64,000 bases of DNA, from the NCBI GenBank assembly GCA_963575745.1, contig CAUYUJ010014542.1:41001-105000 (forward strand), written 5' to 3'. How positions within the stretch are numbered: the first letter of the stretch is position 1; each line of letters starts with the position of its first letter. Shown here piece by piece: positions 10,369 through 45,842 of the stretch. Both the position numbers and the translations under genes were made by a program. This DNA comes from Prorocentrum cordatum (taxonomy: Eukaryota; Sar; Dinophyceae; Prorocentrales; Prorocentraceae). Under the pieces are notes generated by a model that ran no database searches, was not told the DNA's origin, and saw nothing but the letters and a program-made list of their open reading frames with translations.

Positions 10369-10373
10369 AGTGA

Positions 10374-10625
10374 GTCGAAAGTGAGCCTGGTAACTCAAAT
10401 AGGGCATATAGCCTGGCAAATTGCATCCATCGCTCTGCTGTGAAGGTACAGTATGAGGGGTGGATGGGTAAGATAGGATAAGATCGATGTAATGATCTTT
10501 CCAGCACATAGCGAACACTCGCGGTGTCCGGGCAAATAGGGCGCGCGTGCCTTGAGCCCAAGGCAGCGGCGCGCGAGCTATGCTCCCGATACTGTAACAC
10601 CTCCCAAAGAGCTACCCTTAAAGTC
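10374..10625 (-). repeat. 3' LTR of the copia element
   Basis: Identical to 26064-26315 apart from one base. Sense-strand ends are GACTTTAA and TTTCGAC, not the canonical TG...CA. If the 1-nt ambiguity at the inner edge is resolved differently, the repeat is 253 bp with a 4-bp duplication. Confidence 0.93.
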
Positions 10626-10994
10626 GGGAGGGGAGGAGACGGAGAGCATAGTCGCACGCAAAGATCGCGCGCACGACTGCTTGCAAAGAAAAGAAAACAG
10701 TGCGTACAGTCTGGTCAAACACCAGACTGTAAGGCGAGTTTCCTCGCAAAGTATTTCACGCAAATACAGGACAGCCCCTTCAAACAATGAAGGGCTATCG
10801 GCTTAGTTAGAAGTAAGCCAAAATTAGGCCATACCTCACCAAGCAAATGTGTATTAAGGCAAAGAGCCTGAGTTGTACAAAGCCGGCTCGTTGCCAGGCG
10901 TGAAATATAAGGCTCGTTTCCGAGCAGCTAAAGGGGCGCCTTTATAGTAGGCGCCCGTGCTGGCAAACTGGACCGCGAGGGCAACAAGGACAGA
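10626..10994 (-). other. Structured 3' non-coding region of the copia element
   Basis: Lies between the RNase H stop codon and the 3' LTR. It holds two copies of the GCNNG hairpin family (10734-10747, 10912-10925), a 10-bp perfect stem with a 5-nt loop (10706-10730) and an 8-bp stem GGGCGCCT/AGGCGCCC (10934-10956). Where a purine-rich tract is expected next to the 3' LTR, the sense strand is pyrimidine-rich (10626-10646). Confidence 0.7.
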
Positions 10995-13900
10995 CTAAAA
11001 TTGATTAGACTTAGGTTTGTCTCTGTCCTCGGGACCCCGAAAGGGAACAAATTGCTTCACGTCATACTTAAATGACTGAGTGCCTGACATCACTTCCAGA
11101 AGCAGCTCCCGATCGATGCTTCCCTTTGTGTGCCCATCTGCGGTCATATCCCTAGTATCACACCATTGCACATTATGTACTATACCTATATCCATGAGCT
11201 CACGTATCCAGCTGATATGTCCAAGCAGAGTCCGTTCTGTAGGTATTTTGAGATCCCTGCTTGATAAAGATTTGTAGACGGACTCAGCGTCTATGGTAAG
11301 AGAGACTTTGATAGCAAGGCCTCCAACTTCACGCATGTCTCGTAGTTGTCGTGGAGTCAAAGCCCCTGCCTTAAGCTCGTGGAGAGTAATGAGCGTAGGG
11401 TAACACTCATCAAGGTTATGTGCGGCTGCAAGTGCCTCCGCAGCATAACTGGACCTCACCTGTAATCGGTGTGATTTGCATAGTCCGTCACAGAGGTGAA
11501 CGACGGACTTGCCTTGAGGCGAGTTTCCTCGCCGTAGTACGTTGGCCCCGCGTATGCCGTAGCCCTTGGTCTCGTCATCCTCCTCCCCGGTAAGCTTCCG
11601 ATACCCCGAATCGCTATGGATGTCAACTTCATTCGTCGGCTTCATCCGAGGGAAGGTGATGCGTTTCGGGCTGCTGATCAGCTTTCGCGTCACAGCATTC
11701 AAACGTCTGACTTGCAAATTGGTGGGCTCTTGAATTTTCTGAAGAGAGACCACATATACCATGAGCCAGATTTGGGTAAGAAGGGCATAGGCGAGGGCTC
11801 CTCGCAGGCTGACGAACATGTCGGTAATGAGTTTCGTGGCTTTGGCGTCGGCCGCCGCTCCTGTAAGTTCTGGGTGTGTGATAGGACGTAGTTGTTTAAT
11901 GTATTCGTCCTGGTCCATGATCACATCTCCCTGATCATTCTTAGTGTAGCGAACGGCGCAGTTCGTATATGTGTGCTTGTTGAGCTTGCATTTGCCAAAC
12001 ACCTTTTCGACACGTTGTACATAGTCGTCTATATTTTTCTCTAGACCTGTCATATTAATATCATCGACATGTTTTGCCGTCAGAAGGTCTTGGCTGAATT
12101 CAAATTCAGGATCGTAGCTGGTCGGTGTAAGTCCTATAGCTCGTGTGGTCGTACGAAGTTTGAGAGAGAACGCTCTTGGAGCGTCCTTAGTACCCGTTCC
12201 TGGTTTGAGGCATCTAAGACAGCGTCGACTTTCGTCGTAGGATGAGAAGCCGGGTAATGTACGAAGTACCTGAGCGCTTCCTGGTGGAAGAGTAAAGCAA
12301 ACCATGCGAGTTTCCTCGCCGGTGGCATGGGCAAGTTCCTCATAGGTCAAACCCTTGAGGAACGCCTTATCGATATCCATGGATGCTAAGATCCACTCTG
12401 GATGGCATGCCGCTTCACTTGCCAGGAGTCGTTGGGACTGCCTTCGGGCGGTTCCCGAGAATGTTTCCACATCAAAAGCCTCAGTATCCATAAATCCACG
12501 AAGGACCAGTCTGAGACGAATGGTTTTAACGTTCTCGGTACCCATCTTTACGAACTTCCACTTGTATACATATCTGGATGTCATGATGTTGGAAGCTTTG
12601 GATAAATCGTACATCTCAAAGCATCGATTATCAATCCAGATTTTGAGCTCAGTATATAAGGCTTCACTAACCTCCTTTGGATGTGCTGTTATGTCGGCTT
12701 TGGTTAGTAGATCATCTTCTTTGACAACCAGAGCACGTTTAGCAGCAGAGGATACATATACTCTCATCGTTGCGACCATATCGGTATCGAGCTGTGCAAG
12801 TTGAGTCTGATCCAACACTATTTTAGACATTTCTGATGTAAAGCATAGTTCAACGTAAGGACCGTATTCATCACTGTCTAGAGAGTAGCTCTCGTCGGCT
12901 GTGTTTGAACAAAGAGAGACTAGACAGGACTCAAATGATTTCGGCTCGTCTCCGAGCATATCTGATGATATAATATCATCTTCGTCCACAAATGCTGAAA
13001 CCAAAACACACTGGTCGGGCAGCATAGTTGTTGGGACGCAATAAAGATAATCATCGGTAATCGTCGTAGGATGCAGGTCCATACGTAGCTCGTCGTACCA
13101 CTCTTCCAGCATCATAGCTTCAATATTGTGTTCCTCATTTTCCTCATAGATTGTCGACAGACGGCCTTCGCTCGGCGATGAAGCGTCTGGTGTGTCTGGA
13201 GAAGGCCTGTTTCCAGGCGACTCGTGTTCTCCAGACGTGTTGCTTGGATGCTGATATTTAGCCAAATCGTCGTGAAATCCTAAGGAAGGGACACGTGAAG
13301 TCAAGCATTGAATAAGTCTGGAGTGAGTGCTACCAGTGATCTGAGAAATGTTTAAGCCAGTGCCCACGCATTCGTAATAGTGGAACGCCGGGCTGATGTC
13401 GTTGTCATAGTGGATCAGCGTAGACCCGGTGGCGTACTTTACTGCAGGTAAGCTTGACACACTCTTAGCCAATCGAACTGCTACTACATGTTCTACTCGG
13501 AAGTAATTCCGTACGAGATACTGTAGTGCTAAGTGTACGCGCGGGTGAAACTTGCTGTCGTCTGACAGATTAAGGTTTCCCTTGTAATCGGGGATATACC
13601 CGAAAACTTTGGCAGGTTTCCCTGCGCTGAGGTGTGCCACATAAGCAAGGACGGTTTGCATGGCCATATTATCCATGCCAAGTTCCCGTGTGAGGAGACA
13701 TTCGATGTATAGTGTGTGACGAGCATCAGGATACATCACAATTACCTCACGAGATCCTGCCTTGACAACAATATGTCCTCTTTCAGGCACGTTTCGGATC
13801 ACCGGGAATGGGCCGTTCCAGCCTCCATGGTCGTCCTTGGTGGCAGTAGGTCGGTGGTAGTCGACCAAATCCCCTGATGAGTAGAGGCGAGCACCATCAG

Positions 13901-15383
13901 GAGTCGTCTTAGCCCTAAGAGCCCGATTTGTCTTGGCTACAGCAGTAGCCTGAGTTATGGCTTCGAGGCTGACTTCCCTTACACGACGTTCTCGTTCGTG
14001 TCCTGAAGTCTCGGGTCCCTTGGGAAAGTCAAGGGTATCGAGATCAGGAAGGAAGGAGGGCTGACGTCCTGTGTGTGCCTGATATGGCGATACTCCGTTA
14101 TAAAACGTAAACGCATTAGTAACGAAGATGCCTTCCGCCAATACTCTAGTGAATACAACAGGGATGTTGTGTCTATTCAATTCTTCCTCAATCATGTGGA
14201 GGACGCCTCTGAGAATGCCGTTTCGTGACTCAATTGAAGTCGCGTGTTGGCCAGGAGCACGGATACGAAGTTCCGTGCCCTTATTGGCCATCATGGTTTT
14301 AGCGGCATCGTTATTCAGGGCGCCTTCTCCGTCTGAGTATAAAACTTTGAAGGGTCCGCGATAGGCAATCCAGCAATAGTGGTAGGCGTCGATGATAGTG
14401 TCACGTTCTCTGTCGGAAATCTCTAGGCCTGCTGCCAGGCGAATACAACGGTCCATAACATGAAATATGGTCCGTTTCTTGTAAAACATGAGGTCCATTT
14501 CCCCTTCATCGAGCCAGTTACCAGGGAGGCTTATCGATGGTAATGTTGAGTTTCCTGGACGTTCCCATGCTCTACATTCCCGACAGGTATCGCAGATTTC
14601 CTTGATCATGTTCAGTCGAACGTTATCAAGCCCCACCTTTTCGAGGATTAGCCTCATCTTTGGCTCCTTCGCATGATACCATCGCAGATGCAGTTTTCGG
14701 AGTTCCTTTTTCACAACATGGGGTTCGTGACTACGGAGACTCTGTAGACTGTGTTGGATGTCAAATCTCGTCCAGTCGGGTAGTCGTGGAGCCCCAGAGC
14801 CGGTGGAGGCAAGAGGGTTCCTTGTAGCTCTCCGTAGTTGATCCCCTGTGTTGACTGCGTCTGGAGGTGGTGGTACGCCTTGTAGACGTCCGCGGCGGGC
14901 CGCTACCTGTGGCGTGTCACTAGAAGACGCAGAAGGCGTGTTTCCACGCTCGGGGGCGTCTCGTAGTAGGTCGTAGCTGCTAGTACCAGATGTCGGATCG
15001 ACGTTACCGAAGGATCGTGGTCGCGGTGGCCTGGCGCGTGCGCCTTGGCGGCCACCTGAAGCTGAAGCTTGGCCCTCACCAGGTTTAGGTAAGGGTTTCC
15101 ACCAAGCTGGCACGGCTTTGCCTTCGGGGTCGTGGTCGTCTGGTAGTTTAAATGGTTCAGCAAAACGACATTTACCAGGTTCGGTATCAAGGTGGTTCTT
15201 AACACCCTTGCTTCTCGTAAGATCCCTTTGACATGCTGGACATGGCCAATATACAGAGATGGAGTCATGATATTTGCACTGCGTAGGGTCTCTGTTATGG
15301 CTAGGACTGTCCTTTCGGACGTTGTCGATGCATGCCGGGCACGTAGCCACCTTTGGGATGATACGATCCCCGATGCGTCTCAT
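10995..15383 (-). CDS. Copia integrase, reverse transcriptase and RNase H polyprotein
   Basis: The product is 1462 aa with an ATG start that overlaps the stop of the upstream frame (ATGA, 15380-15383). The N-terminus has two Cys/His clusters (CPACIDN, CPACQRD). Integrase: an HHCC-like region ending CDTCREC, then the catalytic triad in MDLMFYKK (about residue 295), LYSDGEG (about 349) and SIESRNG (about 383). RT (RVT_2 type): MDIDKAFLKG (about 1003) and KHVDD (about 1103), the copia YVDD box with His for Tyr. RNase H: VDIHSDSGYR (about 1255), SSYAAEALAA, LTIDAES and CDTRDMTADGHTKG (about 1410). All key acidic residues are present and there is no internal stop, so the enzyme module looks intact. 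Translation probably depends on reinitiation at the ATGA overlap. Confidence 0.95.
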   Translation of the reverse strand: MRRIGDRIIPKVATCPACIDNVRKDSPSHNRDPTQCKYHDSISVYWPCPACQRDLTRSKGVKNHLDTEPGKCRFAEPFKLPDDHDPEGKAVPAWWKPLPKPGEGQASASGGRQGARARPPRPRSFGNVDPTSGTSSYDLLRDAPERGNTPSASSSDTPQVAARRGRLQGVPPPPDAVNTGDQLRRATRNPLASTGSGAPRLPDWTRFDIQHSLQSLRSHEPHVVKKELRKLHLRWYHAKEPKMRLILEKVGLDNVRLNMIKEICDTCRECRAWERPGNSTLPSISLPGNWLDEGEMDLMFYKKRTIFHVMDRCIRLAAGLEISDRERDTIIDAYHYCWIAYRGPFKVLYSDGEGALNNDAAKTMMANKGTELRIRAPGQHATSIESRNGILRGVLHMIEEELNRHNIPVVFTRVLAEGIFVTNAFTFYNGVSPYQAHTGRQPSFLPDLDTLDFPKGPETSGHERERRVREVSLEAITQATAVAKTNRALRAKTTPDGARLYSSGDLVDYHRPTATKDDHGGWNGPFPVIRNVPERGHIVVKAGSREVIVMYPDARHTLYIECLLTRELGMDNMAMQTVLAYVAHLSAGKPAKVFGYIPDYKGNLNLSDDSKFHPRVHLALQYLVRNYFRVEHVVAVRLAKSVSSLPAVKYATGSTLIHYDNDISPAFHYYECVGTGLNISQITGSTHSRLIQCLTSRVPSLGFHDDLAKYQHPSNTSGEHESPGNRPSPDTPDASSPSEGRLSTIYEENEEHNIEAMMLEEWYDELRMDLHPTTITDDYLYCVPTTMLPDQCVLVSAFVDEDDIISSDMLGDEPKSFESCLVSLCSNTADESYSLDSDEYGPYVELCFTSEMSKIVLDQTQLAQLDTDMVATMRVYVSSAAKRALVVKEDDLLTKADITAHPKEVSEALYTELKIWIDNRCFEMYDLSKASNIMTSRYVYKWKFVKMGTENVKTIRLRLVLRGFMDTEAFDVETFSGTARRQSQRLLASEAACHPEWILASMDIDKAFLKGLTYEELAHATGEETRMVCFTLPPGSAQVLRTLPGFSSYDESRRCLRCLKPGTGTKDAPRAFSLKLRTTTRAIGLTPTSYDPEFEFSQDLLTAKHVDDINMTGLEKNIDDYVQRVEKVFGKCKLNKHTYTNCAVRYTKNDQGDVIMDQDEYIKQLRPITHPELTGAAADAKATKLITDMFVSLRGALAYALLTQIWLMVYVVSLQKIQEPTNLQVRRLNAVTRKLISSPKRITFPRMKPTNEVDIHSDSGYRKLTGEEDDETKGYGIRGANVLRRGNSPQGKSVVHLCDGLCKSHRLQVRSSYAAEALAAAHNLDECYPTLITLHELKAGALTPRQLRDMREVGGLAIKVSLTIDAESVYKSLSSRDLKIPTERTLLGHISWIRELMDIGIVHNVQWCDTRDMTADGHTKGSIDRELLLEVMSGTQSFKYDVKQFVPFRGPEDRDKPKSNQF

Positions 15384-17497
15384 ACCTTCGCCTGGTTCAG
15401 CTTGCTCAGGAAGGTCGGCAGGATAAGCATGTGCAGACTTATAGGCGCGTTTCCGCGCGTAGTGTCAATGGCTTTCGCCAGATAGACGGCTTCCACGAAG
15501 GCAGACTGCAGTCGTCGAGTATATCTTTGTGCTAGTGAAAGCTCGGTGTTGCACGGTTGTGCGTGCACATGCTGACCGTTGCACTTGAGTCGCTCAAAGG
15601 GTTTAAGAATTGTCTCGTCGTTGCTGGTGATATTTGTCGGCTTCTTAATATAGTCACCAGTCGTATCCTTAAGTCCCGTAGCGCATTGGTCAATGCGCAC
15701 GGTTGTAATGTGTGGTCGGTTGGCAAGCTTCGTCCATGGAGAGATATCGTCCACCCATGTTCCTGTAGGTTGTTCGCGTATAAACCACCTCTGAGCGTCA
15801 TCTTGGGTTACAGCAATTTTACCACAGTAAATTATGTGTGGTAAGTCTTCTCTGTGGTGCTGTTCCCAAGTGTTATAGTTGACTTTGTAGTTATAGTAAG
15901 ATGGTGGTCCTGTGGTGCGGCAGCTGGGTTGCAGCATGGCAACTCGTACGTAGCATATCTTAAAGTAATGATCTATAACCTGCTGCACCGAGGGGTCTCC
16001 CAGGTCGACATATGTAGTCTTGTCCAAGTTGCCGCCTGAGGAAAGTCCCCTTGAGAAGGCAAGCTCTGAGATGCCACCCTCGCCGCCACAAAGCTCCAAC
16101 ATATCCACGCAGTTGTTATGGCCGTAGCATAGTGTAGCAACTATGCTGTATATGTTAGCGTGTGTGTCGGGCATAGATGTGGGGAGGGTAAGGAACAGGT
16201 CATCGTCCTCGTCGGAGCTTATCAGCTCAACAGGGACGTCAGTACTCCAGATTGCCATAAGATCCTGTCCGAGTCCTGACAAGTCGTCGCCGCAATCGTC
16301 ATTTCCGTCTTCGACGTGCTTTTTAATGCGGCGAGGCTTGATGCCTGCTTCCTTTTCGGCTTTGAGCCTCTCCTTCTGTTTTATACGCGATTCAGTGGGT
16401 AAAGCTTGTTCGTCTTGTTCGTCGGTCTGTGTACTCATTGTCGTGGTTGAATGGGTACATGCGTCAATCGCCAGAGTCGGGAGGGGGAGAGAACAGTCAT
16501 CTATGATGACGCGTCGATGTTTCTGTGGTGATTGAGTCGGCTCGTTTCCGAGCAAGACCGGTTCCTCGGGTTGCCAATACAACCGAGTACTGATGTTGGC
16601 AACCCCTGCAGGTAATGGTGCATGCCAATCATACCCTGTTGGTTGATCGGTAACTGAGATATCTTGAATAACCGCGTTGGTATCCAGGTTGATTGTTACA
16701 CGTCGGATGACTTCAGACCATTTTGGTCCTCCCTTATGAGTCGTCACGTAGTGACGGGTATTATGGTCTGTACGTGTATACGTATTTAAGTATACGGGCA
16801 CGTTTCCGTGCGTGGTGGTGCTCCCCAGGATTTTGTCGTTCAAGTGACGGATGAGTATAGTGCGTGTCTGAGCCCGCCATTCAGCATGTCGTACTGTATG
16901 GCCGTACCAATCCAACACATGTTGTGGTATGGCCTGCTTACAGGTACATGTCCACAGCTTCGAGCTGATCGGTATAGATGATGCTACCTGCATATAGGTA
17001 CCGCTTGGTGTACTGTCTTGCATATTGAACCGAATACCGAAATGACACAGACGCATCCGTATTACTGACAACTTTAGATCTTCCAGGGTATCACGTACTG
17101 GAGATAACTTCCAAACATATCCTGGGGGACCAAATATTATAATCTTCATGCGGAGTTTCTTGGCTTTAATCAACAGGTTCTGGATACGTGACCAATGTGG
17201 GGCCACTCTCTTTCCTGGAGTTCGTACGTACCAGTCACCCGGAGTACTAATCCATATGAGAGTGTAATCTCCACTGATCACCGCACCTAGGTAGTTTGTG
17301 CCCACGCTTGTCATAAGTTCGTTGTGGGAAATACGATCACAAATATAACCTCGTGTGCGGAGGTCGGCACATGCCTCCCTCGTATCTTCGATGACAAAAG
17401 CCCTCTTACTAAGGCAGGTTACCCCGCTGTCCTTGTTACCCCCCGGCTTTTCAGCCAACAGGCAAGGCGACGAGGGGGCGACGTCGCCCTGCCATCT
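15380..17497 (-). CDS. Methyltransferase-like accessory region of the copia polyprotein
   Basis: About 705 codons in the same frame as the protease frame upstream, separated from it by a single UGA (17500-17498). The first half (GDYTLIWISTPGDW, IIIFGPPGYVW, LWTCTCKQA) resembles an accessory domain of dinoflagellate copia polyproteins. The second half has motifs in the order of a cytosine-C5 methyltransferase: DMLELCGGEGGIS (about residue 450, motif-I-like), LQPSC (about 507, in place of PC), REQPTGTWV (about 560, in place of ENV), then RIDQCATGL and KKPTNITSN. Capture of cytosine methyltransferases by eukaryotic retrotransposons, including in Symbiodinium, has been reported; membership of that class is an inference here. 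There is no ATG near the beginning, so UGA readthrough or a non-AUG start is needed. Confidence 0.65.
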   Translation of the reverse strand, partial: RWQGDVAPSSPCLLAEKPGGNKDSGVTCLSKRAFVIEDTREACADLRTRGYICDRISHNELMTSVGTNYLGAVISGDYTLIWISTPGDWYVRTPGKRVAPHWSRIQNLLIKAKKLRMKIIIFGPPGYVWKLSPVRDTLEDLKLSVIRMRLCHFGIRFNMQDSTPSGTYMQVASSIPISSKLWTCTCKQAIPQHVLDWYGHTVRHAEWRAQTRTILIRHLNDKILGSTTTHGNVPVYLNTYTRTDHNTRHYVTTHKGGPKWSEVIRRVTINLDTNAVIQDISVTDQPTGYDWHAPLPAGVANISTRLYWQPEEPVLLGNEPTQSPQKHRRVIIDDCSLPLPTLAIDACTHSTTTMSTQTDEQDEQALPTESRIKQKERLKAEKEAGIKPRRIKKHVEDGNDDCGDDLSGLGQDLMAIWSTDVPVELISSDEDDDLFLTLPTSMPDTHANIYSIVATLCYGHNNCVDMLELCGGEGGISELAFSRGLSSGGNLDKTTYVDLGDPSVQQVIDHYFKICYVRVAMLQPSCRTTGPPSYYNYKVNYNTWEQHHREDLPHIIYCGKIAVTQDDAQRWFIREQPTGTWVDDISPWTKLANRPHITTVRIDQCATGLKDTTGDYIKKPTNITSNDETILKPFERLKCNGQHVHAQPCNTELSLAQRYTRRLQSAFVEAVYLAKAIDTTRGNAPISLHMLILPTFLSKLNQAKV

Positions 17498-20400: not shown

Positions 20401-20836
20401 TAGGCAGGTTTCCCTGCATGGCCTGACGATTTCTCGTAGCCATAGCGGACATTGCTCCCTGGCCTGCGGCCCAGGGATCCTGCTGGTATAACCTGTCCGC
20501 CAGCTGTTCTACCTGGTCAGGGTTCAGCGCGGCTGCGATCTGATCCAGGTCCGAGGTACTAATGGCCTGCCAAGACACGGCACTAGGCCCTTGGCTTGGG
20601 GCACGGCTTGGAGCCGCGCTCCCGGCCTCACTCTCGGTGATCATGAAGATCCGAAAGATCTCAGGCTGGTTTCCCAGCTGGGTAGGGCTGTAGTGGTCCC
20701 CAACTTCCCTGTGGGGGTAGACCATGGGGGGGTCGACGCCCTCCTTGGTCTTGGGACCACTGGTACTTAACGCTGGAAGTACCAACGTCAGCCCACCTGT
20801 CAGGAGCAGACATCGTTGCGACAGAGACTCGCGCAT
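17498..20836 (-). CDS. RING-H2 finger and aspartic protease protein of the copia element
   Basis: 1112 aa from ATG at 20836, ending in UGA followed in frame by the methyltransferase-like region. The N-terminal ~30 residues are hydrophobic (LLLTGGLTLVLPAL). The middle is Pro/Gln/Met-rich. A RING-H2 finger lies at about residues 472-535: CAVCLEEF, then RCNHLFHEGCW, then CAICRAPG (C3H2C3 spacing). A short coiled-coil-like segment (SARELRELRSMVEEMTSRM) follows. The retroviral-type protease has ILIDVGSKINIMG (about 810-823; DVG where D-S/T-G is usual) and LPAILGLDSM (about 893-903). Eleven GNRA hairpins fall inside the frame, giving repeated QGNLP, RGNPP and related motifs. RING-H2 is a typical E3-ligase fold; its role in a retrotransposon is unknown. 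Confidence 0.85.
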   Translation of the reverse strand: MRESLSQRCLLLTGGLTLVLPALSTSGPKTKEGVDPPMVYPHREVGDHYSPTQLGNQPEIFRIFMITESEAGSAAPSRAPSQGPSAVSWQAISTSDLDQIAAALNPDQVEQLADRLYQQDPWAAGQGAMSAMATRNRQAMQGNLPTSGPARFEPMHGSPTQSMHTPRGMTPLGTPPAQSPFGTPVRPAANGTLMERIAAARADHSTALLNMMPPGTPTSQQGNLPGTPSHHRAGVPDDYRSRVAAAVQQVQNHNLPHPSGQRWRPAWSWEPEGPNPRDPARQRAFIPAFNAHPSMSQGQRPPPTQMNSPLYPDGSRVPNKFVRELADQMHNLTNVRCSDHSMYPHMAFMPSPTSPEVVVQPTAHSISSGSRGVPDYIRQTHHTQQACFRRRQAVQSVRDQSRAAALDVVRNRGSPLRGNSPAVTPTTSMPNVEVQEVLNPTGTPPSAFMPSETVLERQRRVYPRVADVEVFTGMEDTCAVCLEEFQPRDSVYRLRCNHLFHEGCWNSNVVGHVANQREGDPQQPPCAICRAPGIIASSFPWTGSFSQTPEQSARELRELRSMVEEMTSRMLAMQTVPSQQQGYLPEEVRPPMETGYFDQLIPMTAPQQGNLHDTPQMSPQSGGEAEMSLGPDQLRELRVRHFQNQMDNTHTTFMLDANNPETDSPSLDLSESSAASAATAARAVNISATNEEFEEWLRYRDHVTNEGLQDIALHSYLTLIRRTTREQYMSIRDEYANWREERGDHAQHVSYFQYIDLARMAESESHASVVRGNPPGSTNVPRGNPPTDTTDTSEIVHIKQPSKTFLDDGGNSILIDVGSKINIMGENTSRKFVQAAEAHGRTCTFEPRSRLNINGVGEGSAPADTVGTFSIACEYHGSAQLGSYKTNIVSGCGKDLPAILGLDSMQDKRTIIVLERGQEKLIFPGKGQVKMELPEGSKIMPTTKLPSGHLSIRCDCFGAAGQPASSSSSTSFQTVLTGEPTPAQERNQLQGNLPQGLMETLAKATMRGDNINDLETFDCFVARTLALHVGSVPMDAVQSRRKIVMGYTNRELHTVSDARSKGVLKQLMDNPSMLTAFAEQSASEATARCSAELQHLREAQMLADIVGTSSSS

Positions 20837-21035
20837 GGCGGCTCCCCAAATACTCTGGATTACGCCATTGCCTTCCTGTGGTCAGATCCTCTACATGAGA
20901 GATGTAATACGGTTCAATGATACCGTTATCTCCCTCGGACAAGAGGACTCCGTTATCGGACCAACAGAACTTCATACCATCTTGTATGGCCTGACGCCAA
21001 TCTACGAAGATGATGATGTTGAATCTGGGTCCCAC
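20661..21035 (-). CDS. Tpt1/KptA-like domain, C-terminal end, plus tail
   Basis: Open frame in -1 relative to the preceding one, overlapping it by 34 nt; no ATG. The segment FNIIIFVDWRQAIQDGMKF followed by SDNGVLLSEG corresponds to the last strands of Tpt1/KptA (the FYxSxNGVxLT region). The remaining ~70 codons are Gln/Pro-rich and overlap the start of the next frame in the element. Confidence 0.7.
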   Translation of the reverse strand: MGPRFNIIIFVDWRQAIQDGMKFCWSDNGVLLSEGDNGIIEPYYISHVEDLTTGRQWRNPEYLGSRHARVSVATMSAPDRWADVGTSSVKYQWSQDQGGRRPPHGLPPQGSWGPLQPYPAGKPA

Positions 21036-21514
21036 CCACTGTTCACGGCACGGCGGCGAACTGTCGGCACGAAGTGAATGTGCGAACGGCCTGTCCCCTT
21101 TTTCTTCGTGTTGTGCTCAGGTCTACAGGACAGGCCGTGCCACATAATACCTTCGAAAGCATGCCATCGAGTGCCATGCATGGCGACTTCAGGGTATGGG
21201 GCCGGTCTCCCGGCAGGTTGGTCGCACAGTACAATGTAGCTGTACAGCGACCATGGAGCTTTCAATGTCCATGAATGCCCCTGAGAGGCGCGGATGAAGA
21301 TAGCGGGCTCGCCAGAGTCCCGCATTAACACCTTGAACTGTAGGCGCTGTTTTTCTTCTCCGTCTGGTTCACGGACATGAACAACTGCCATCATGATGGC
21401 TGCCAGTTGGTCAACCGAGCGCCTACATATGCTCGTTGATGACCTTGGCCTCGTCATACTTTGGGCTATACCCAGCATGTCTTGATTGACCTGTGTTCCA
21501 CGGATAATGGTCAA
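21002..21514 (-). CDS. Tpt1/KptA-like RNA 2'-phosphotransferase, catalytic lobe
   Basis: Tpt1/KptA enzymes use NAD+ to remove the internal 2'-phosphate left at RNA splice junctions by the tRNA-type ligation pathway. Visible motifs: EEKQRLQFKVL, then FIRASQGHSW (the conserved R-x-x-QGHS), VAMHGTRW (the LYHGT strand), GLSCRPEHN and GRSHIHFV (R-x-H-hydrophobic-H). The N-terminal winged-helix lobe (LSKALSRICRH, DGWVNLVELV) is in the preceding frame. The four catalytic residues known for Tpt1 (Arg-His, Arg, Arg) are all identifiable. The domain crosses two frame changes, near 21425 (+1) and 21035 (-1). I know of no other retrotransposon with this domain. The alternative that it is an unrelated fold is unlikely given five ordered motifs. 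Confidence 0.85.
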   Translation of the reverse strand: MTIIRGTQVNQDMLGIAQSMTRPRSSTSICRRSVDQLAAIMMAVVHVREPDGEEKQRLQFKVLMRDSGEPAIFIRASQGHSWTLKAPWSLYSYIVLCDQPAGRPAPYPEVAMHGTRWHAFEGIMWHGLSCRPEHNTKKKGTGRSHIHFVPTVRRRAVNSGWDPDSTSSSS

Positions 21515-24500
21515 CGAGTTCCACTAGGTTAACCCAACCATCATGATCATCGAAAGATTCCAAGCGCCACACAGGACTGTGTTGCTTGTCTGGCGCATGT
21601 CTGCATATCCTGCTGAGAGCTTTGCTCAGCTGTTTGAGAATATCATTGGATGTGGGAAGGATTCCAGCTTTCCTGCATTCCTTCATGAATGTCTCATCCA
21701 CCGAGCGTATCGGTGGGAGCTTCCGAAGCGCAAGTCTATCCCTGATCACATTTGGAGTCCCACTAGTGAAGGACGTGTCACCTGGGTGGTGCAGCTGAAC
21801 CACTGGCGGGTTTCCCCGCATCGGAGCCTCTGTTGCTGAAGAGGCTGCGGCTCCAGAAGAGGAGGAAGCTGCGGCGGCAGCGCCTGGCGGGTTTCCCCGC
21901 GGAGATGCGCGACTGACGCTGCCCCTGATCTTCGGCACCCAGGTACCCCTCGACATAGCTCCTTCATCGGACCTCCTGGAACGAGCCGCCACAGGCGAAG
22001 CTGGCGCAGGTGCATGCCCGCTGCGCTCGAAAGCTGCCGCCCTTTTCGCAATGGAATTGCTGCGACTAAGCGGGCGTCTTCGTTCCTCCATAGGGTCCTG
22101 AGGTTGCTGCTTGGGCACAGACGCTTGTGGAGGAGTTGCGCCAATCGGCGGCTTCGGCGTCGCAGATCGAGGCACCTCCATATGCGCGTCTGGCCCAGGG
22201 TCCTGAGGGCTCGTCTTCGGTTTCGGCACCGGGGACGGCTTAGGTGTCGGGGGTTCACTCTTGGCCTTCGAAGTTAGTGGGAGTGGGGGCCTTGTAGCCC
22301 TCTTCATGTAGATCTTACTAGAATCTTCCAACATCTTGCGAGTTGCCTCGCGAGTGCGGTCTTCTGCTGCCCGCATACGCTCCTCATCCTCCGCCACGCG
22401 TTGAGCCTTTATCTCATCCTTGATTGTCGGTTCTGGTTGTTGGGACTGGCTAGAGACGCCAGGCGAGTTTCCTCGCATGCTAGGAAGACTGAAGAGCGCG
22501 TCTTTCTCTTCCTGGGTCATGGCTACCAGTCCCCTTGGAACCGGGGTAGGCTTTTCTTCTTCTTTCGGATCCAAGTGGCCCAAGATCCCGAGACGATGAT
22601 TCACTTCCGCGATCTCGTCCTGCGCCATCGGGATAAGTGGCGGATGGCCCTCTTTAGGAGGGGTTTTGCCCCTGTTGGGACTCAGGCCTTCGTTGTTGCC
22701 AACGGGGCATCCTGGCCTGTGATTCTGGAACGGCCGGGAACAAGGTCCGCATGCTGCGTGAGGCCTATACTGCTTGCGCGCCGCGATAATATCTTGCAAC
22801 TGAGTCCGCACTTCTGGAATTTCAGGGCGGCGGATGTTTGTTGCAAGCTGATAGCCTCCGCGGATGGGCTTGCCATCACTGTCCCTATAGGCAGGGTTGC
22901 CCTGGCCAAAGGCCGAGTGTTCCCCTTTTCGGCGTCTTGGGTCGTTGTACGGAAGTAGCTGGCCACCTCTCCTGAGAGCGTGTTCTTTTGGGCCAGCCTG
23001 TCTCCACTCACGAGGAAGTCGAGCCTGGGGATGTGGCTCTTCTCTGACGCGCGTATGGGAACGAGATCTTCTGGTGTTCTCATCAGAGGAAGCTGCCGAT
23101 GCAGCAGGAGCGGCACCCGGTGGAGGTGCCTGAGGAGGCTCCTGTGCGATCCCAGATGGATCGTCCGATGGAGGCAGGTCTCCCTGCTGGGTGGAGCTCG
23201 GCGCAAGTGGCGCTTGTGCCGATGGTGAAGATGATTCAGACTCATCAGGGTCGAAATCGACCTCTTCCTCACCATTCACGTCCATCATGAGGATGGTGAC
23301 ATCATCCTCATCTAACCCGCAGCCATCGCCATCTACTTCTTCTGATGTCGAACTACCAATGATGATGGCCATTGGCGTATCTGGTACAGGCAGGTTTCCC
23401 TGCATAGCCAGCGTCTGGGCGTCGCTCGGCTGTCCCGGAGTAGGGGGCATTGTTGTCGGCTCAGGCTCGTCGCCGAGCATAGGCTGCCCAGCAATGTTAC
23501 GCATGGCCGTATGGTTCGGCCTCATTCCCACCGCCTGGAGACCCCATCCTGGCGGAGGAAGATCATGACCGCGCATAGCCATCGCCATTTCCAGAGCACG
23601 ACGCCATCTACCACGGGAGTATATCAAGTGTCTCTGCACTTCCTGAGGATACACGCTGTCAATGAGAGTCAGCGCTGCCAAAGGTAGCTCTGAACTACCG
23701 CAAGCATCATTATCCTGTTCTGTCATGATGCCAGCTTCGATGTGTTCTTGACTCTCAGGATAACCAATTGTAAATATCTCATGCATCCTCATGAGGGTCT
23801 GCAAAAGGGTACGTGGTCCATATTCGCCTGGAGCAAGCGAACCAGGAGGTATAAACGGAATATCTGGTTCGCCTGCAATGAAGGCCTGAACAAATGCCTG
23901 AGACTCCATTTCAATTAAGTCTTCAGTGGTCTGGGGATATTCTCCCATCAAAGAAGGCCTGTTTCCAGGCGGGATTTCGGGCGGAGGTTCAAGGTTTCGT
24001 TGAACCTCGGAAGGCGAAGCCTCTATAGTGGTGTCCTCGTCGCCACTCTCGTAAGCCATGATGTTGCCTGGGTTCCCGAACATCCAGTCGAAGAATGACA
24101 GAGGCTCGTTTCCAAGCGTGCCGTGTTCCACGGGAGTGAGTTCGTTACTGCCCGTGACGAACCGGCGGACGTACTCGAGGTAGTACGCGTACAATCCATG
24201 ACCATACCCCTCGAGCTCGTCGATGTTGTCCATGCCAACTACCCAAGTGAAAAATATCTGTTCCATAGCCTCAAAGTCCTGGAGGCTCAGATATTCAATG
24301 GATGGTGCACTTGAGCCAAAATGGACTTCGGACGACATGCCCTTTCCATTTCCCTTCGCTGGACAATCTCGCACAAGATGATCGGAACTACCACATTCAT
24401 GGCATTTGAGAACCTGGCCGTCTCTACCTCGCGGGTTTCCCCGCCTACCTTTACCTTTACCTGAGGTCTCTCTACGGCCTTTACCACGGCCTTTTCCCCC

Positions 24501-25034
24501 AAAGAATATCTCATCATGTTGTTCATCTGAGAGCCTCTGGAGAAATGCCGCGATACCTCGCCCGTTCAACCTCCGACGACCACGCTTGCCTTTACCCTTT
24601 CCTTTAAAACTTCTGCGTATCCTCCTTCTAACACGACGCACTGGTTTTCGTGTGAACCTCCTCCACCTTCGTTTGGCCTGTTGTAACAGCCAGAATAAAT
24701 GCTCAGCACGCTGATTGTCGTTATCCATATTCATGATATCTGACCAATCTAGAGCTTCAACACCATCTGATGATATAGTGTCTGTATCGGTGCCGGAGTC
24801 GAAGTCTTCGTCTCCTAAATAGGTGGATACACCGTCGGTTAGGGGATTTGATTCCCCCCATAACGAGCGGTGTGGTTGTGGTTCTCTAGAAGGAGGGCTG
24901 GTTGCCCAGCTTGGTTGTGATCGATCCCCTGCTAATAAAGCAGTGGATTCTCCTGGGTCATCGGCCCATATGCTTGAGGGCCCGTTTCCAGGCTGGGCTT
25001 CAGTGGTCACTACCAGATCCCCTTCCCCTTCCAA
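21423..25034 (-). CDS. Gag-like protein with zinc knuckle; C-terminus begins the Tpt1 domain
   Basis: About 1203 codons, open from a TTG at 25034 and in the +1 frame relative to the upstream frame, which it overlaps by 35 nt in a G-rich run. Order: acidic N-terminus; Arg/Lys-rich segment (RKPVRRVRRRIRRSFKGKGK); a CCHC zinc knuckle CHECGSSDHLVRDC (about 24403-24362), typical of Gag nucleocapsid; long Pro/Glu-rich linkers; and a C-terminus with LSKALSRICRH (about 21630-21600) and DGWVNLVELV (about 21545-21515), the N-terminal lobe of Tpt1/KptA. Thirteen GNRA hairpins are embedded. A 15-nt DinoSL match lies just after the zinc knuckle at 24310-24324. Confidence 0.85.
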   Translation of the reverse strand: MEGEGDLVVTTEAQPGNGPSSIWADDPGESTALLAGDRSQPSWATSPPSREPQPHRSLWGESNPLTDGVSTYLGDEDFDSGTDTDTISSDGVEALDWSDIMNMDNDNQRAEHLFWLLQQAKRRWRRFTRKPVRRVRRRIRRSFKGKGKGKRGRRRLNGRGIAAFLQRLSDEQHDEIFFGGKGRGKGRRETSGKGKGRRGNPRGRDGQVLKCHECGSSDHLVRDCPAKGNGKGMSSEVHFGSSAPSIEYLSLQDFEAMEQIFFTWVVGMDNIDELEGYGHGLYAYYLEYVRRFVTGSNELTPVEHGTLGNEPLSFFDWMFGNPGNIMAYESGDEDTTIEASPSEVQRNLEPPPEIPPGNRPSLMGEYPQTTEDLIEMESQAFVQAFIAGEPDIPFIPPGSLAPGEYGPRTLLQTLMRMHEIFTIGYPESQEHIEAGIMTEQDNDACGSSELPLAALTLIDSVYPQEVQRHLIYSRGRWRRALEMAMAMRGHDLPPPGWGLQAVGMRPNHTAMRNIAGQPMLGDEPEPTTMPPTPGQPSDAQTLAMQGNLPVPDTPMAIIIGSSTSEEVDGDGCGLDEDDVTILMMDVNGEEEVDFDPDESESSSPSAQAPLAPSSTQQGDLPPSDDPSGIAQEPPQAPPPGAAPAASAASSDENTRRSRSHTRVREEPHPQARLPREWRQAGPKEHALRRGGQLLPYNDPRRRKGEHSAFGQGNPAYRDSDGKPIRGGYQLATNIRRPEIPEVRTQLQDIIAARKQYRPHAACGPCSRPFQNHRPGCPVGNNEGLSPNRGKTPPKEGHPPLIPMAQDEIAEVNHRLGILGHLDPKEEEKPTPVPRGLVAMTQEEKDALFSLPSMRGNSPGVSSQSQQPEPTIKDEIKAQRVAEDEERMRAAEDRTREATRKMLEDSSKIYMKRATRPPLPLTSKAKSEPPTPKPSPVPKPKTSPQDPGPDAHMEVPRSATPKPPIGATPPQASVPKQQPQDPMEERRRPLSRSNSIAKRAAAFERSGHAPAPASPVAARSRRSDEGAMSRGTWVPKIRGSVSRASPRGNPPGAAAAASSSSGAAASSATEAPMRGNPPVVQLHHPGDTSFTSGTPNVIRDRLALRKLPPIRSVDETFMKECRKAGILPTSNDILKQLSKALSRICRHAPDKQHSPVWRLESFDDHDGWVNLVELVDHYPWNTGQSRHAGYSPKYDEAKVINEHM
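24310..24324 (-). other. 15-nt match to the 3' end of the dinoflagellate spliced leader
   Basis: The minus strand reads CCATTTTGGCTCAAG, identical to the last 15 nt of the conserved 22-nt DinoSL. It is in the sense direction inside an open frame, encoding part of VHFGSS. A chance match of this length in 64 kb on both strands is expected about once in ten thousand windows. Confidence 0.7.
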
Positions 25035-26199
25035 ACACAGATCCTATGTTACCAGGAGACCGTTCGGATAGGTGGCCTATCGAACGCATCCTCTCCAGCA
25101 ACTCATCATACTGTTGTTGTGTTCGAGGCATTTGGTGGTTGAGTGGCTGTAAGAGTTGCATGGCTTTCTGGTTGCCGACGCCTAAGGCGCGGAATAGGAT
25201 AGTGGTTAGCAGTTGGAAGTTAGGAAGGTCGAATCCCACCGACTGTGCCTCAAGTCGGGCCATTTCGAATCGGGTAAGAGTGACATCGATTCGTTCCCCG
25301 TGAGGCACATGGAAGTCGATGAGTTGTGTGCCAGAAGTGAGCTGTCGCTCATCTTCCAGGCGTTCGAACTTCATGCTGAGGAGGAACATGATGTAAGTTA
25401 CTGGGTCTGTGTGGACCCCATCAATATCAGCACCATAGTTTATAATGTCAGGCGGTACCCTCATGGCGAGTGTCCTCGCTAGGCCACCTAGGCCGCGTTG
25501 TATTGCGGCCGCTTGGGCCTGTGGCGTCATACGTCCGTTTGTAACGTTGAGCCATGCGTTGACCTCGTAGATGTACTCACGAAAAGGTACATTACCTTGA
25601 GGGTCCCAATATGGGCCATGTGTTTGCCCATCGGTGCCGTTATCTCCACGACGCATGTGTCCGATTGCTGCCCCCAGCGCGAACCATATGATAGCGAAAA
25701 CGATTAGCCCGAGAATGTGTAACGAAGGACGGTTATGATGCGCGTTGTCGCGCTGGGGTAGCGCCTTGTCGAGTCTTCGAGGCGCTCTGTCTGGCGGGTC
25801 TCCCCGCCCTTGCTTCAAGTATTGCGCTGTTAGCTCGTTGCCGAGCGGTTGGTAGTAACGCAATGATGAAGCGTATATGGTACCAGTTTGGTCGTCTAGA
25901 CGTCGTACCTCTCGTGTTGCTTCTTGCTCTTGAATAGATCCTCGTAAACGTACTGGGAGTGGTGGCGCAGGGTGGTAGGTGGTCACGAAGATCGTGCCGA
26001 AGAATATGAGGCTAAGAAGAGCAAGAGCTGACCACACGAGAGTGCGGCCAGCTCCGCTACCAAGTCGAAAGTGAGCCTGGTAACTCAAATAGGGCATATA
26101 GCCTGGCAAATTGCATCCATCGCTCTGCTGTGAAGGTACAGTATGAGGGGTGGATGGGTAAGATAGGATAAGATCGATGTAATGATCTTTCCAGCACAT
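25000..26199 (-). CDS. Gag-like protein with two hydrophobic segments, starting inside the LTR
   Basis: About 399 aa from the ATG at 26199, which lies inside the 5' LTR. The frame reads through the LTR end and the primer-binding site; the next in-frame Met, in GYMPYLSY, is also in the LTR. Two strongly hydrophobic helices (about residues 55-77, SALALLSLIFFGTIFV, and 161-183, HILGLIVFAIIWFALGAAIG) could span a membrane, which is unusual for a copia Gag. The C-terminal half is helical and Gag-capsid-like (FLLSMKFERLEDER, FELARLEAQSVGF-like, LLERMRSIG). It ends in a Gly/Arg-rich stretch where the +1 frame takes over. Capsid identity is inferred from position. Confidence 0.75.
   Translation of the reverse strand: MCWKDHYIDLILSYPSTPHTVPSQQSDGCNLPGYMPYLSYQAHFRLGSGAGRTLVWSALALLSLIFFGTIFVTTYHPAPPLPVRLRGSIQEQEATREVRRLDDQTGTIYASSLRYYQPLGNELTAQYLKQGRGDPPDRAPRRLDKALPQRDNAHHNRPSLHILGLIVFAIIWFALGAAIGHMRRGDNGTDGQTHGPYWDPQGNVPFREYIYEVNAWLNVTNGRMTPQAQAAAIQRGLGGLARTLAMRVPPDIINYGADIDGVHTDPVTYIMFLLSMKFERLEDERQLTSGTQLIDFHVPHGERIDVTLTRFEMARLEAQSVGFDLPNFQLLTTILFRALGVGNQKAMQLLQPLNHQMPRTQQQYDELLERMRSIGHLSERSPGNIGSVFGRGRGSGSDH
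26049..26062 (-). promoter_or_regulatory. Primer-binding site, initiator-Met tRNA type
   Basis: Directly inside the 5' LTR the sense strand reads TGGTAGCGGAGCTG. This matches the 3' end complement of eukaryotic initiator-Met tRNA (TGGTAGCAGAGG) at 10 of 12 positions. TGG is the complement of the tRNA CCA end. Confidence 0.8.
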
Positions 26200-26315
26200 A
26201 GCGAACACTCGCGGTGTCCGGGCAAATAGGGCGCGCGTGCCTTGAGCCCAAGGCAGCGGCGCGCGAGCTATGCTCCCGATACTGTAACATCTCCCAAAGA
26301 GCTACCCTTAAAGTC
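26064..26315 (-). repeat. 5' LTR of the copia element
   Basis: 252 bp, one mismatch to the 3' LTR. It contains the first ATG of the gag frame at 26199, so transcription presumably starts upstream of it within the LTR. No TATA-like box is evident on the sense strand. Confidence 0.93.
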
Positions 26316-45354: not shown

Positions 45355-45650
45355 CATGATAGCCAAGCCCAACTCATTCCATCCAGTGCCGGCCCACTGC
45401 CGTTCCGCACAGCTCATGTCAGCTCAGTCCAGCTCAGTGTAGCTAAATCTGGCTCTGTCTAGCTCGGCATGACAGTTCAGCTCAGCCCGGTTCGACATGG
45501 ATCAGTCCTGCTCTGTCTAGCTTGGCCTGGTTCTGTTCAGCTCAGCCCAGCGCACTCCACCTCATCTCAGTTCAGGCACGGTGCACCTCACCCACATGTT
45601 GTAGTTTGCTTGGCCCATGTCCACCCAGCTCAGCCCAGCTCAGCCTAGCT
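45355..45650. repeat. CAGCTCAGNC degenerate ~10-bp repeat
   Basis: Irregular array of CAGCTCAG(C/T)C units. The same family is at 57545-57720. Confidence 0.8.
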
Positions 45651-45809
45651 CCGACCAGCTCGTCTTGTTTCCCAACCTTCCTGTGTTGGGTTTTCGTTTT
45701 GAATAGAACAGTGTGGTCGTCCCGTCCTTCCTCCTTCCTCCTTCCCTCTCCTCCTCTCCTCCTTCTCTTCTTCTTTGTTCCCTGTGTTCCCTTCTCCTCT
45801 TCTCTTGTG

Positions 45810-45842
45810 CCGTCTGCGATCTGCGCTGCTGATCGCAGACGG
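45810..45842. other. 12-bp perfect-stem hairpin at the satellite boundary
   Basis: CCGTCTGCGATC (45810-45821) pairs with GATCGCAGACGG (45831-45842) around a 9-nt loop. The 103-bp satellite begins immediately after it. Confidence 0.8.

What the first reader, a model, noticed from the sequence alone, without database searches (positions are those of the whole stretch)
10734..25846. Thirty-eight copies of one GNRA-tetraloop hairpin spread through a single retrotransposon
Seen: 36 perfect and 2 wobble copies of GCNNG-loop-CNNGC, loop GAAA in 25. Under equal base composition the stem pattern alone is expected about 0.2-0.3 times in 16 kb. Stems use ten different inner dinucleotides with full compensation, so the structure and not the sequence is conserved. 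The two non-Watson-Crick copies (24104, 24980) are G-U in sense RNA but A-C or G-T in the antisense reading, pointing to RNA as the selected form. Copies occur in three codon registers and in the 3' non-coding part, so protein selection cannot explain them. I saw none elsewhere in the window. The nearest known analogies are Rickettsia palindromic elements, yeast GC clusters and mitochondrial double-hairpin elements; I know of no nuclear retrotransposon example.
Basis: partly seen in the sequence, partly recalled or inferred. Interest (0 to 1): 0.95.

Follow-up and report, generated by a model that had tools for sequence, protein, structure and literature searches.

The report
Forty-two RNA hairpins stud one retrotransposon
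A jumping gene from what is probably a dinoflagellate alga carries 42 copies of one precisely built hairpin along its internal region, kept by paired changes even inside its protein genes, which suggests an RNA address label that the element's own proteins may read.

Summary
Shuffles give 0.37 of the 39 Watson-Crick stems; the rest of the window has no GNRA copy. Stem (5 bp), loop (4 nt), three fixed pairs and, mostly, a 3' C are held; the two inner pairs vary but pair. The only one-step deviants are three sense G-U pairs and two loop changes. Synonymous resampling would keep about 4 of 39 coding copies paired. New here: related polymerase proteins (45-75% identical) carry the hairpin's protein footprint, X-G-[N/D]-Y, in which X and Y change together as complementary codons at linker sites; several relatives repeat a type of their own. 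The clearest copy in a conserved motif arose without length change, unlike inserted palindromes. Best explanation: dispersed recognition sites on the genomic RNA, most likely packaging sites read by the element's own Gag, with a lineage-specific code. Relatives' DNA and the rest of the host genome could not be read.

The parts
26063..26315 (-). 5' LTR (253 bp)
   Evidence: 100% identical to 10373-10625; 4-bp flanking duplication AGTG on the + strand; TGGTAGCGGAGC follows it in sense, like a primer binding site (reading of the sequence)
10373..10625 (-). 3' LTR (253 bp)
25000..26208 (-). ORF with Gag capsid domain (residues about 199-390)
   Evidence: relatives align; predicted fold (mean pLDDT 70) resembles PNMA2 and Copia capsids, Foldseek prob 0.98-1.00 for the top three but E >= 0.07
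21423..25034 (-). Gag ORF: Arg-rich segment, CCHC zinc knuckle (Pfam 19.3 bits, just under its cut-off 20.8), start of a Tpt1/KptA-type domain
20837..21422 (-). broken stretch carrying more of a Tpt1/KptA-type domain, in more than one frame
   Evidence: PF01885 E 1.8e-9 on 21005-21421; frames
17498..20836 (-). ORF with RING finger and protease-like block
   Evidence: PF17123 E 1.5e-8; block at residues about 802-957 conserved in gag relatives; 'protease' is my motif reading, not a Pfam hit
15380..17458 (-). 692-aa ORF, corresponds to the N-terminal part of the relatives' polymerase polyprotein
10995..15383 (-). pol ORF: reverse transcriptase (RVT_2, copia type); integrase and RNase H by position only
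   Evidence: PF07727 E 5.1e-9
25833..25846 (-). hairpin GCTCG-GCAA-CGAGC
25794..25807 (-). hairpin GCGGG-GAGA-CCCGC
25740..25753 (-). hairpin GCGCG-ACAA-CGCGC (loop variant)
25466..25479 (-). hairpin GCGAG-GACA-CTCGC
24980..24993 (-). hairpin GCCTG-GAAA-CGGGC (G-U)
24897..24910 (-). hairpin GCTGG-GCAA-CCAGC
24431..24444 (-). hairpin GCGGG-GAAA-CCCGC
24104..24117 (-). hairpin GCTTG-GAAA-CGAGC (G-U)
23957..23970 (-). hairpin GCCTG-GAAA-CAGGC
23465..23478 (-). hairpin GCTCG-GCGA-CGAGC
23390..23403 (-). hairpin GCAGG-GAAA-CCTGC
23174..23187 (-). hairpin GCAGG-GAGA-CCTGC
22463..22476 (-). hairpin GCGAG-GAAA-CTCGC
22338..22351 (-). hairpin GCGAG-GCAA-CTCGC
21887..21900 (-). hairpin GCGGG-GAAA-CCCGC
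21806..21819 (-). hairpin GCGGG-GAAA-CCCGC
21201..21214 (-). hairpin GCCGG-GAGA-CCGGC (between the listed ORFs)
20665..20678 (-). hairpin GCTGG-GAAA-CCAGC
20404..20417 (-). hairpin GCAGG-GAAA-CCTGC
20164..20177 (-). hairpin GCAGG-GAAA-CCTGC
19986..19999 (-). hairpin GCTCG-GCAA-CGAGC
19576..19589 (-). hairpin GCGAG-GAAA-CTCGC
19084..19097 (-). hairpin GCAGG-GATA-CCTGC
19003..19016 (-). hairpin GCAGG-GAAA-CCTGC
18514..18527 (-). hairpin GCGGG-GTAA-CCCGC
18481..18494 (-). hairpin GCGGG-GAAA-CCCGC
17946..17959 (-). hairpin GCGGG-GCAA-CCCGC
17857..17870 (-). hairpin GCAGG-GAAA-CCTGC
17760..17773 (-). hairpin GCCAG-GACA-CTGGC
16798..16811 (-). hairpin GCACG-GAAA-CGTGC
16540..16553 (-). hairpin GCTCG-GAAA-CGAGC
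15445..15458 (-). hairpin GCGCG-GAAA-CGCGC
14936..14949 (-). hairpin GCGTG-GAAA-CACGC
14427..14440 (-). hairpin GCCTG-GCAG-CAGGC (loop variant)
13612..13625 (-). hairpin GCAGG-GAAA-CCTGC
13205..13218 (-). hairpin GCCTG-GAAA-CAGGC (linker site, alignment column 1634)
12944..12957 (-). hairpin GCTCG-GAGA-CGAGC (linker site, alignment column 1760)
12306..12319 (-). hairpin GCGAG-GAAA-CTCGC inside a conserved RT motif (query GEETR, P0001 GEATR, the other 17 of 17 relatives GE.ER)
11519..11532 (-). hairpin GCGAG-GAAA-CTCGC
10912..10925 (-). hairpin GCTCG-GAAA-CGAGC (3' non-coding)
10734..10747 (-). hairpin GCGAG-GAAA-CTCGC (3' non-coding)

Best explanation
The hairpins are recognition sites on the element's full-length RNA, on average one per 370 nt, for a trans-acting factor that reads the 5-bp stem length, the G-C and C-G pairs at its base, the closing G-C pair, the GNRA-type loop and an unpaired 3' C, while the two middle pairs only need to pair. 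The most likely reader is the element's own Gag (capsid plus Arg-rich segment plus CCHC knuckle), and the most likely role is selective packaging and condensation of a nearly 16-kb genomic RNA into particles, as proposed for dispersed packaging signals of ssRNA viruses. Shown: the sites, their strict shape, pairing kept against the expectation from protein coding and chance, codon-complementary change in relatives' proteins at linker sites, confinement to the element within this window.
For: 39 Watson-Crick sites against 0.37 expected; exact geometry: with GC base and G-C closing pair, 39 copies with a 4-nt loop against 0 (3 nt), 3 (5 nt), 1 (6 nt), 0 (7, 8 nt); with GNRA loops, 0 copies with stem 4, 6 or 7 and 1 with stem 3; only 2 of 42 stems could extend past 5 bp; 3' C in 33 of 39 and T next in 22 of 39, the C kept in 11 of the 13 sites outside the main codon register (my count); one-step deviants are 3 sense G-U and 2 loop changes, none at a fixed stem position; 135 of 135 cells paired and covariation score 0.589 against 0.094; 4.1 of 39 coding copies expected to stay paired under synonymous resampling; sense pairing probability above 0.5 in 39 of 42; spacing more even than random, CV 0.67 against 0.97, 0.4% of simulations as even; X/Y codon complementarity in relatives 41 of 113 cells against 24.6 +- 3.5 in columns chosen by rule, and 33 of 50 against 12.7 +- 2.9 in five linker columns picked after viewing; at least 6 and 4 changes between complementary types on the tree at two sites; a repeated X-Y type beyond shuffles (at most 4 of 500) in 8 of 18 close relatives, 0 of 19 distant ones; Gag with capsid-like fold, basic segment and CCHC.
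Against: No binding, packaging or expression data. Relatives were read only as proteins. Outside the five linker columns the X/Y test shows no excess within columns (87 of 406 cells against 87.4). 10 of 18 close relatives show no significantly repeated type; the repeated type of P0005 (R-V) pairs only with a G-U; H-A, H-T, H-E, H-L, P-V, Q-S and Q-T sites are not complementary. When Y is permuted among a protein's own sites, P0001, P0009, P0012 and P0013 stand out (at most 6 of 500), but so does one distant relative, P0019 (2 of 500), so that control is not clean. A host reader is not excluded.
Confidence: 0.5

Rival explanations
1. The hairpins are read by another factor for another purpose: a host or element protein controlling export, stability, translation or silencing of the transcript, or RNA processing in which the element's Tpt1/KptA-type domain takes part.
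For: Same sequence evidence as the best explanation. A Tpt1/KptA-type domain lies in the gag region. Hairpins also occur in the 3' non-coding part (2 in 369 nt).
Against: Repeated stem types differ between related elements, easier to explain with an element-encoded reader unless the hosts also differ, which is unknown. Spread over the whole internal region suggests a whole-genome role.
Confidence: 0.29
2. Small mobile palindromes inserted many times in the element, like Rickettsia palindromic elements, yeast GC clusters or mitochondrial double hairpins.
For: Many near-identical copies in coding and non-coding parts; footprints inside short insertions in P0009 and P0013 near alignment column 2280.
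Against: Copies at 14427, 13612 and 12306 replace residues with no length change, clearest at 12306; flanks carry little shared sequence beyond CT; no decayed copies (5 one-off sites, none with a broken fixed pair); footprints at the same linker positions in relatives about 50% identical; none outside the element in the window.
Confidence: 0.05
3. Mechanical concerted evolution: reverse transcriptase template switching copies hairpins and perfects their arms, without function.
For: Conversion of inverted repeats by repair and recombination is discussed for Nematomorpha mitochondria (PMC6649704, passages seen); some relatives repeat one stem type.
Against: Does not explain exact 5-bp/4-nt geometry, GNRA loop, fixed pairs, 3' C, 11 inner dinucleotides, or even spacing.
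Confidence: 0.07
4. The selected form is DNA: hairpins or cruciforms in cDNA or chromosomal DNA, read by integrase, RT or a chromatin protein.
For: GNNA-type loops may be stable in DNA too (recalled, not tested).
Against: 3 of 3 imperfect pairs are G-U in sense; all GNRA copies with the closing G-C pair lie on the sense strand; none in the LTRs. Three deviants are few, and in relatives' five linker columns G-U-only (6) and A-C-only (4) cells do not discriminate.
Confidence: 0.08
5. Chance, base composition or protein-motif artefact.
For: 29 of 39 coding copies share one register, giving a recurrent xGNxP peptide.
Confidence: 0.01

Closest known systems
Multiple dispersed packaging signals of ssRNA viruses and HBV pregenomic RNA (MS2, STNV, picornaviruses; review PMC6281560, passages and section 10 seen)
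   Same: Many short stem-loops with a shared recognition motif spread through a genomic RNA
   Different: Here the sites share one exact geometry with three fixed pairs and exceed chance about 100-fold; the element is an LTR retrotransposon; coat-protein binding is untested
Retroviral and Ty1/Ty3 packaging signals (PMC8396678 and PMC11381356, passages seen)
   Same: Cis-acting RNA structure for Gag selection in an LTR element
   Different: Those passages place packaging sequences in the structured 5' end (for Ty3 they are called not precisely defined, with both UTRs and POL needed); here about 40 copies of one hairpin run along the internal region
Palindromic insertion elements (Rickettsia palindromic elements, GC clusters, double hairpins; search listing or recalled)
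   Same: Repeated hairpins that can lie in frame in coding sequence
   Different: No insertion signature at the clearest sites, no decay, found only in one element of the window, 14-nt exact geometry
Coding palindromes of Nematomorpha mitochondria (PMC6649704, passages seen)
   Same: Inverted repeats under protein-coding constraint
   Different: Those are long (mean repeat length 43 bp, average distance between arms 37 bp); I saw no shared loop motif described in the passages
Lambda boxB / N peptide (recalled, no call)
   Same: 5-bp stem with GC base and GNRA-fold loop read by an arginine-rich peptide
   Different: Pentaloop, few sites, unrelated function; resemblance only

Membership tests
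Dispersed packaging signals | Multiple stem-loops with a common recognition motif across the genomic RNA | tested here: met
   42 sites
Dispersed packaging signals | Bound by the capsid or Gag protein | not testable with these tools
   no binding data
Dispersed packaging signals | Loss reduces packaging or assembly | not testable with these tools
   experiment needed
Dispersed packaging signals | Element encodes a capsid protein | tested here: met
   capsid-like predicted fold; best matches PNMA2 and Copia capsids, prob 0.98-1.00 but E >= 0.07, none at E <= 0.001
Palindromic insertion element (RPE-like) | Copies are insertions with clean empty sites | tested here: not met
   in-place substitutions at 14427, 13612, 12306; footprint-bearing insertions do occur in P0009 and P0013; no near-identical copies could be compared
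Palindromic insertion element (RPE-like) | Spread through the host genome | tested here: inconclusive
   none in the other 48 kb of the window; whole genome not searchable (genome search did not complete)
LTR retrotransposon, copia type | LTR pair, RVT_2 reverse transcriptase, Gag capsid | tested here: met
LTR retrotransposon, copia type | Integrase N-terminal to RT | tested here: inconclusive
   no Pfam integrase hit in the query; PF00665 precomputed in distant relatives P0026, P0027, P0031, P0037
Known Rfam RNA family | Match at gathering score | tested here: not met
   0 matches in 10373-26315

The most novel reading that the evidence does not exclude
A clade of large copia-type elements (probably of dinoflagellates) carries an element-specific RNA identity code: dozens of hairpins of one exact geometry along the genome, read by the cognate Gag, with stem type changing between lineages in step across many of an element's sites, so that co-resident families package only their own RNA.
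Probability: 0.4. Interest if true: 0.95.

Novelty: categorically new. Interest (0 to 1): 0.88.

Why it matters
How LTR retrotransposons pick their own RNA is poorly defined even in yeast (PMC8396678, PMC11381356, passages seen). An element with 42 copies of one hairpin, visible covariation, and relatives that seem to use different hairpin types would make Gag-RNA specificity and its co-evolution directly testable by swapping stems and Gags. It also points to an RNA-structure constraint strong enough to shape residues in a reverse transcriptase, and gives a way to see such constraint from protein sequences alone. In nine answered paper searches (listings) of an open-access library I found no description of such an array in a retrotransposon; most subscription papers are not held.

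Tried and rejected
Host-genome test: the genome search 'own' was asked 14 times with the same pattern and never answered, so density in the rest of this genome is untested.

DNA of relatives: none found in viral contigs or genome contigs. Two 16-base hairpin patterns in viral contigs gave 38 and 36 loci; 0 of 74 had a cluster (at most 3 GNRA hairpins of the core type each).

A first pooled back-translation test over the 72 proteins was only moderately positive (stem >= 7: 55 of 1139 sites against 31.1 +- 5.5; stem >= 5: 193 against 161.6 +- 11.3; stem >= 4: 227 against 197.4 +- 12.5); conserved protein motifs may dilute it, and a column-wise test was then made. There, sites in columns with at most 3 rows also exceed a pooled permutation (44 of 146 against 24.4 +- 4.2), protein-conserved columns do not (31 of 204 against 38.7 +- 5.4). 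A back-translation scan for the query's own GC-type was enriched in P0001 (11 against 0.8), P0009 (6 against 0.7), P0007 (4 against 0.2), P0010 (4 against 0.9) and P0038 (5 against 0.1), but P0013, P0014, P0016 and P0018 had 0 and most others 1-2; 20 shuffles each, weak statistics. The general 5-bp GNRA version was uninformative for most relatives. Gag relatives P0040-P0072 show no convincing footprint; S-P x3 in P0040 is a repeat but not codon-complementary.

An error of mine was mended: one search used a hand list of complementary types that wrongly held N-D; the recount with the computed rule gives at least 4, not 5, changes at column 1634 and leaves 6 at column 1760.

GNRA 11-nt tetraloop receptor: two loose matches in 15.4 kb, no array. 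Rfam: none. Insertion, DNA-level, chance and protein-motif readings ranked low as given.

Full report
WHAT IS THERE. The window holds an LTR retrotransposon on the minus strand, 10373-26315, with two 253-bp LTRs that are 100% identical and a 4-bp flanking duplication, AGTG on the + strand. Its pol ORF has a copia-type reverse transcriptase (PF07727). Gag is spread over several ORFs: a capsid domain whose predicted fold resembles PNMA2 and Drosophila Copia capsids (top three Foldseek probabilities 0.98-1.00, but E values 0.07 or worse; Arc, HIV and Ty1 capsids follow), an Arg-rich segment and CCHC knuckle, a Tpt1/KptA-type domain in a stretch with broken frames (PF01885 E 1.8e-9), and a RING finger followed by a protease-like block conserved in relatives. 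The host is probably Prorocentrum cordatum or close kin: one named protein of that species (P0039) is 94% and 84% identical to the element over two pieces of 87 and 85 residues. This is an inference from one protein.

THE OBSERVATION. In the internal region there are 39 Watson-Crick copies of GCNNG-NNNN-CNNGC and 3 more with one G-U pair, 42 in all. Dinucleotide shuffles of the same region give 0.37 of the Watson-Crick kind on average, at most 4 in 300. Loops are GNRA in 37 of 42, GAAA in 25. The other 48 kb of the window has 14 stem matches, 10 of them with loop CATG in a microsatellite and none with a GNRA loop. The geometry is strict: with GC base and closing G-C pair, 39 with a 4-nt loop, against 0 (3 nt), 3 (5 nt), 1 (6 nt) and 0 (7 and 8 nt); with a GNRA loop no 4-, 6- or 7-bp versions and one 3-bp version; only 2 of 42 stems could be extended by a pair. 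The base after the hairpin is C in 33 of 39 and the next is T in 22 of 39; no other flanking position within 12 to 16 nt carries comparable information. By my count from the listing, among the 13 of 42 sites outside the main codon register the C is kept in 11, so it is not only a proline-codon effect.

SELECTION ON STRUCTURE. On the 27 distinct rows of the 42-copy alignment every cell pairs (135 of 135), 32 cells have both sides changed, and the covariation score is 0.589 against 0.094 in shuffles (0 of 500 reach it); slid structures fall to 20-47% paired. These rows were found by a search that demands pairing, so the 100% is by construction; the independent evidence is how few near-misses exist. 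Sites one step away from the pattern number only five (0.6 expected in shuffles): three G-U pairs, all G-U in the sense strand, and two loop changes; none has a mismatch at a fixed stem position. Three pairs never vary; the two inner pairs each use all four Watson-Crick types. Resampling synonymous codons with the element's own usage would leave about 4.1 of 39 coding copies paired. Folded with 75-nt flanks, the stem has pairing probability above 0.5 in 39 of 42 sense sites and 26 of 42 antisense sites. RNA as the selected form is therefore likely but rests on few deviants.

RELATIVES, READ THROUGH THEIR PROTEINS. No DNA of relatives could be fetched, but 37 homologous polymerase proteins could; 18 of them, 45-75% identical, were aligned. 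In the main register the hairpin reads X-G-[N/D]-Y(-P), and X (CNN) and Y (NNG) must be complementary codons: Q-L, H-V, P-R, L-E/Q, R-S/P/A/T and so on. P0001, 75% identical, has seven such xGDxP motifs, several at the query's own sites with the stem kept and the loop codon D instead of N, and it shares or nearly shares the off-register footprints RLAAG, AGKPA and GEATR. In more distant relatives footprints persist at linker positions while X and Y change together: at alignment column 1760 the 16 rows with the motif include L-E, R-T, R-S, H-V, P-R and T-G (12 of 16 fully complementary; H-E, H-L, H-T and R-V are not), and at column 1634 P-R, R-S, R-A, L-E and H-V (8 of 14; H-A, N-D, Q-S twice, Q-T and S-V are not). 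On a tree made without the hairpin columns this needs at least 6 and 4 changes between complementary types, and 3 and 2 at columns 1036 and 977. In columns chosen by a rule (at least 4 rows, 3 X and 3 Y residues) 41 of 113 cells are complementary against 24.6 +- 3.5 when Y is permuted within columns (0 of 2000 reach it). In five linker columns that I picked after viewing, 33 of 50 against 12.7 +- 2.9. In all other columns 87 of 406 against 87.4, that is, no excess within columns. The within-column test does not correct for relatedness, and the aligner may have been helped by the shared G-N.

ELEMENT-SPECIFIC TYPES. Several relatives repeat one type of their own: P-R eight times in P0013 (PGNR followed mostly by I, often with DP before it, which can be read as stems up to 11 bp by codon degeneracy), P-R four times in P0014, H-V six times in P0009 and four in P0015, R-V four times in P0005, T-G three times in P0012, H-V three times in P0011, R-A three times in P0003. 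Such a repeat exceeds shuffled proteins (at most 4 of 500) in 8 of 18 close relatives and in 0 of 19 distant ones. R-V would need a G-U pair; H-A and H-T in P0004 and P0010 would be mismatched, so the reading is not clean everywhere. In the second control (Y permuted among a protein's own sites) P0001, P0009, P0012 and P0013 stand out, but so does the distant P0019 (3 complementary sites against 0.7). P0001 is not uniform in loop type: its GEATR copy implies a GCAA-type loop.

NOT INSERTED PALINDROMES. At 14427, 13612 and 12306 the query's hairpins sit in pol motifs and replace residues without length change. The clearest is the RT motif, where the 17 relatives other than P0001 read GE.ER (mostly GEKER) and the query GEETR, P0001 GEATR. 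At 13612 the relatives vary (P0012 also has AGKPA), so that site is weaker evidence. Some footprints in relatives do lie in short insertions (P0009 and P0013 near column 2280), so gain with an insertion may also happen.

HOW IT MOST LIKELY WORKS. A factor that recognises exact stem length, fixed pairs at both ends of the stem, a GNRA-type loop and a 3' C, with a spacer of any two pairs, would produce this pattern (inference). The sites are spread more evenly than random points (CV 0.67 against 0.97; 0.4% of simulations as even; largest gap 1095 nt, which 6% of simulations match), densest in the gag part and the 3' non-coding part. That is the anatomy expected of dispersed packaging or condensation signals read by the element's own Gag, which has a capsid-like fold and a strongly basic segment (22 Arg/Lys in 35 residues) near a CCHC knuckle. 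The element-specific types fit co-evolution of code and reader. Against a simple assignment, gag relatives without visible footprints have the same basic segment, and 31 of 33 a CCHC match. I put packaging by cognate Gag at about one half and another reader or role at about 0.29.

NOVELTY. [quoted passage not shown] Retrotransposon papers seen here in passages place packaging sequences at the 5' end or call them not precisely defined. No paper found describes such an array in a retrotransposon (listings only). I rate it categorically new as an architecture, with the function unproven.

Noticed in passing
20837-21782 (-): A Tpt1/KptA RNA 2'-phosphotransferase-type domain (PF01885, E 1.8e-9 and 0.0014 on two pieces) lies in the gag region of this element; the Pfam domains precomputed for the 33 gag relatives do not include it. 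The frames are broken in this copy.
   Followed up: partly
17498-20836 (-): RING finger in the gag polyprotein, also listed for most gag relatives; a profile of the gag alignment matches Arkadia/RNF165-type RINGs: an E3-like domain carried by a retrotransposon clade.
   Followed up: partly
25000-26208 (-): Two long helices in hydrophobic stretches (residues 53-75, 162-186) are predicted before the capsid domain; possible membrane segments in Gag.
   Followed up: no
10373-10625 and 26063-26315: LTRs lack TG...CA ends, and the tract before the 3' LTR is pyrimidine-rich in sense rather than a polypurine tract.
   Followed up: no
L044, L046, L048, L052, L058, L059, L064, L071-L074: Eleven viral-contig loci share GCTCGGAAACGAGC together with TGATGGAGACATCA; perhaps a conserved feature unrelated to this element.
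   Followed up: no
48666-52766 (-): Long ORF that looks like a LINE-type endonuclease plus reverse transcriptase (my motif reading, no search); it has no 5-bp GNRA hairpin.
   Followed up: no
45522-47980: Stretch of long repetitive ORFs open on both strands.
   Followed up: no
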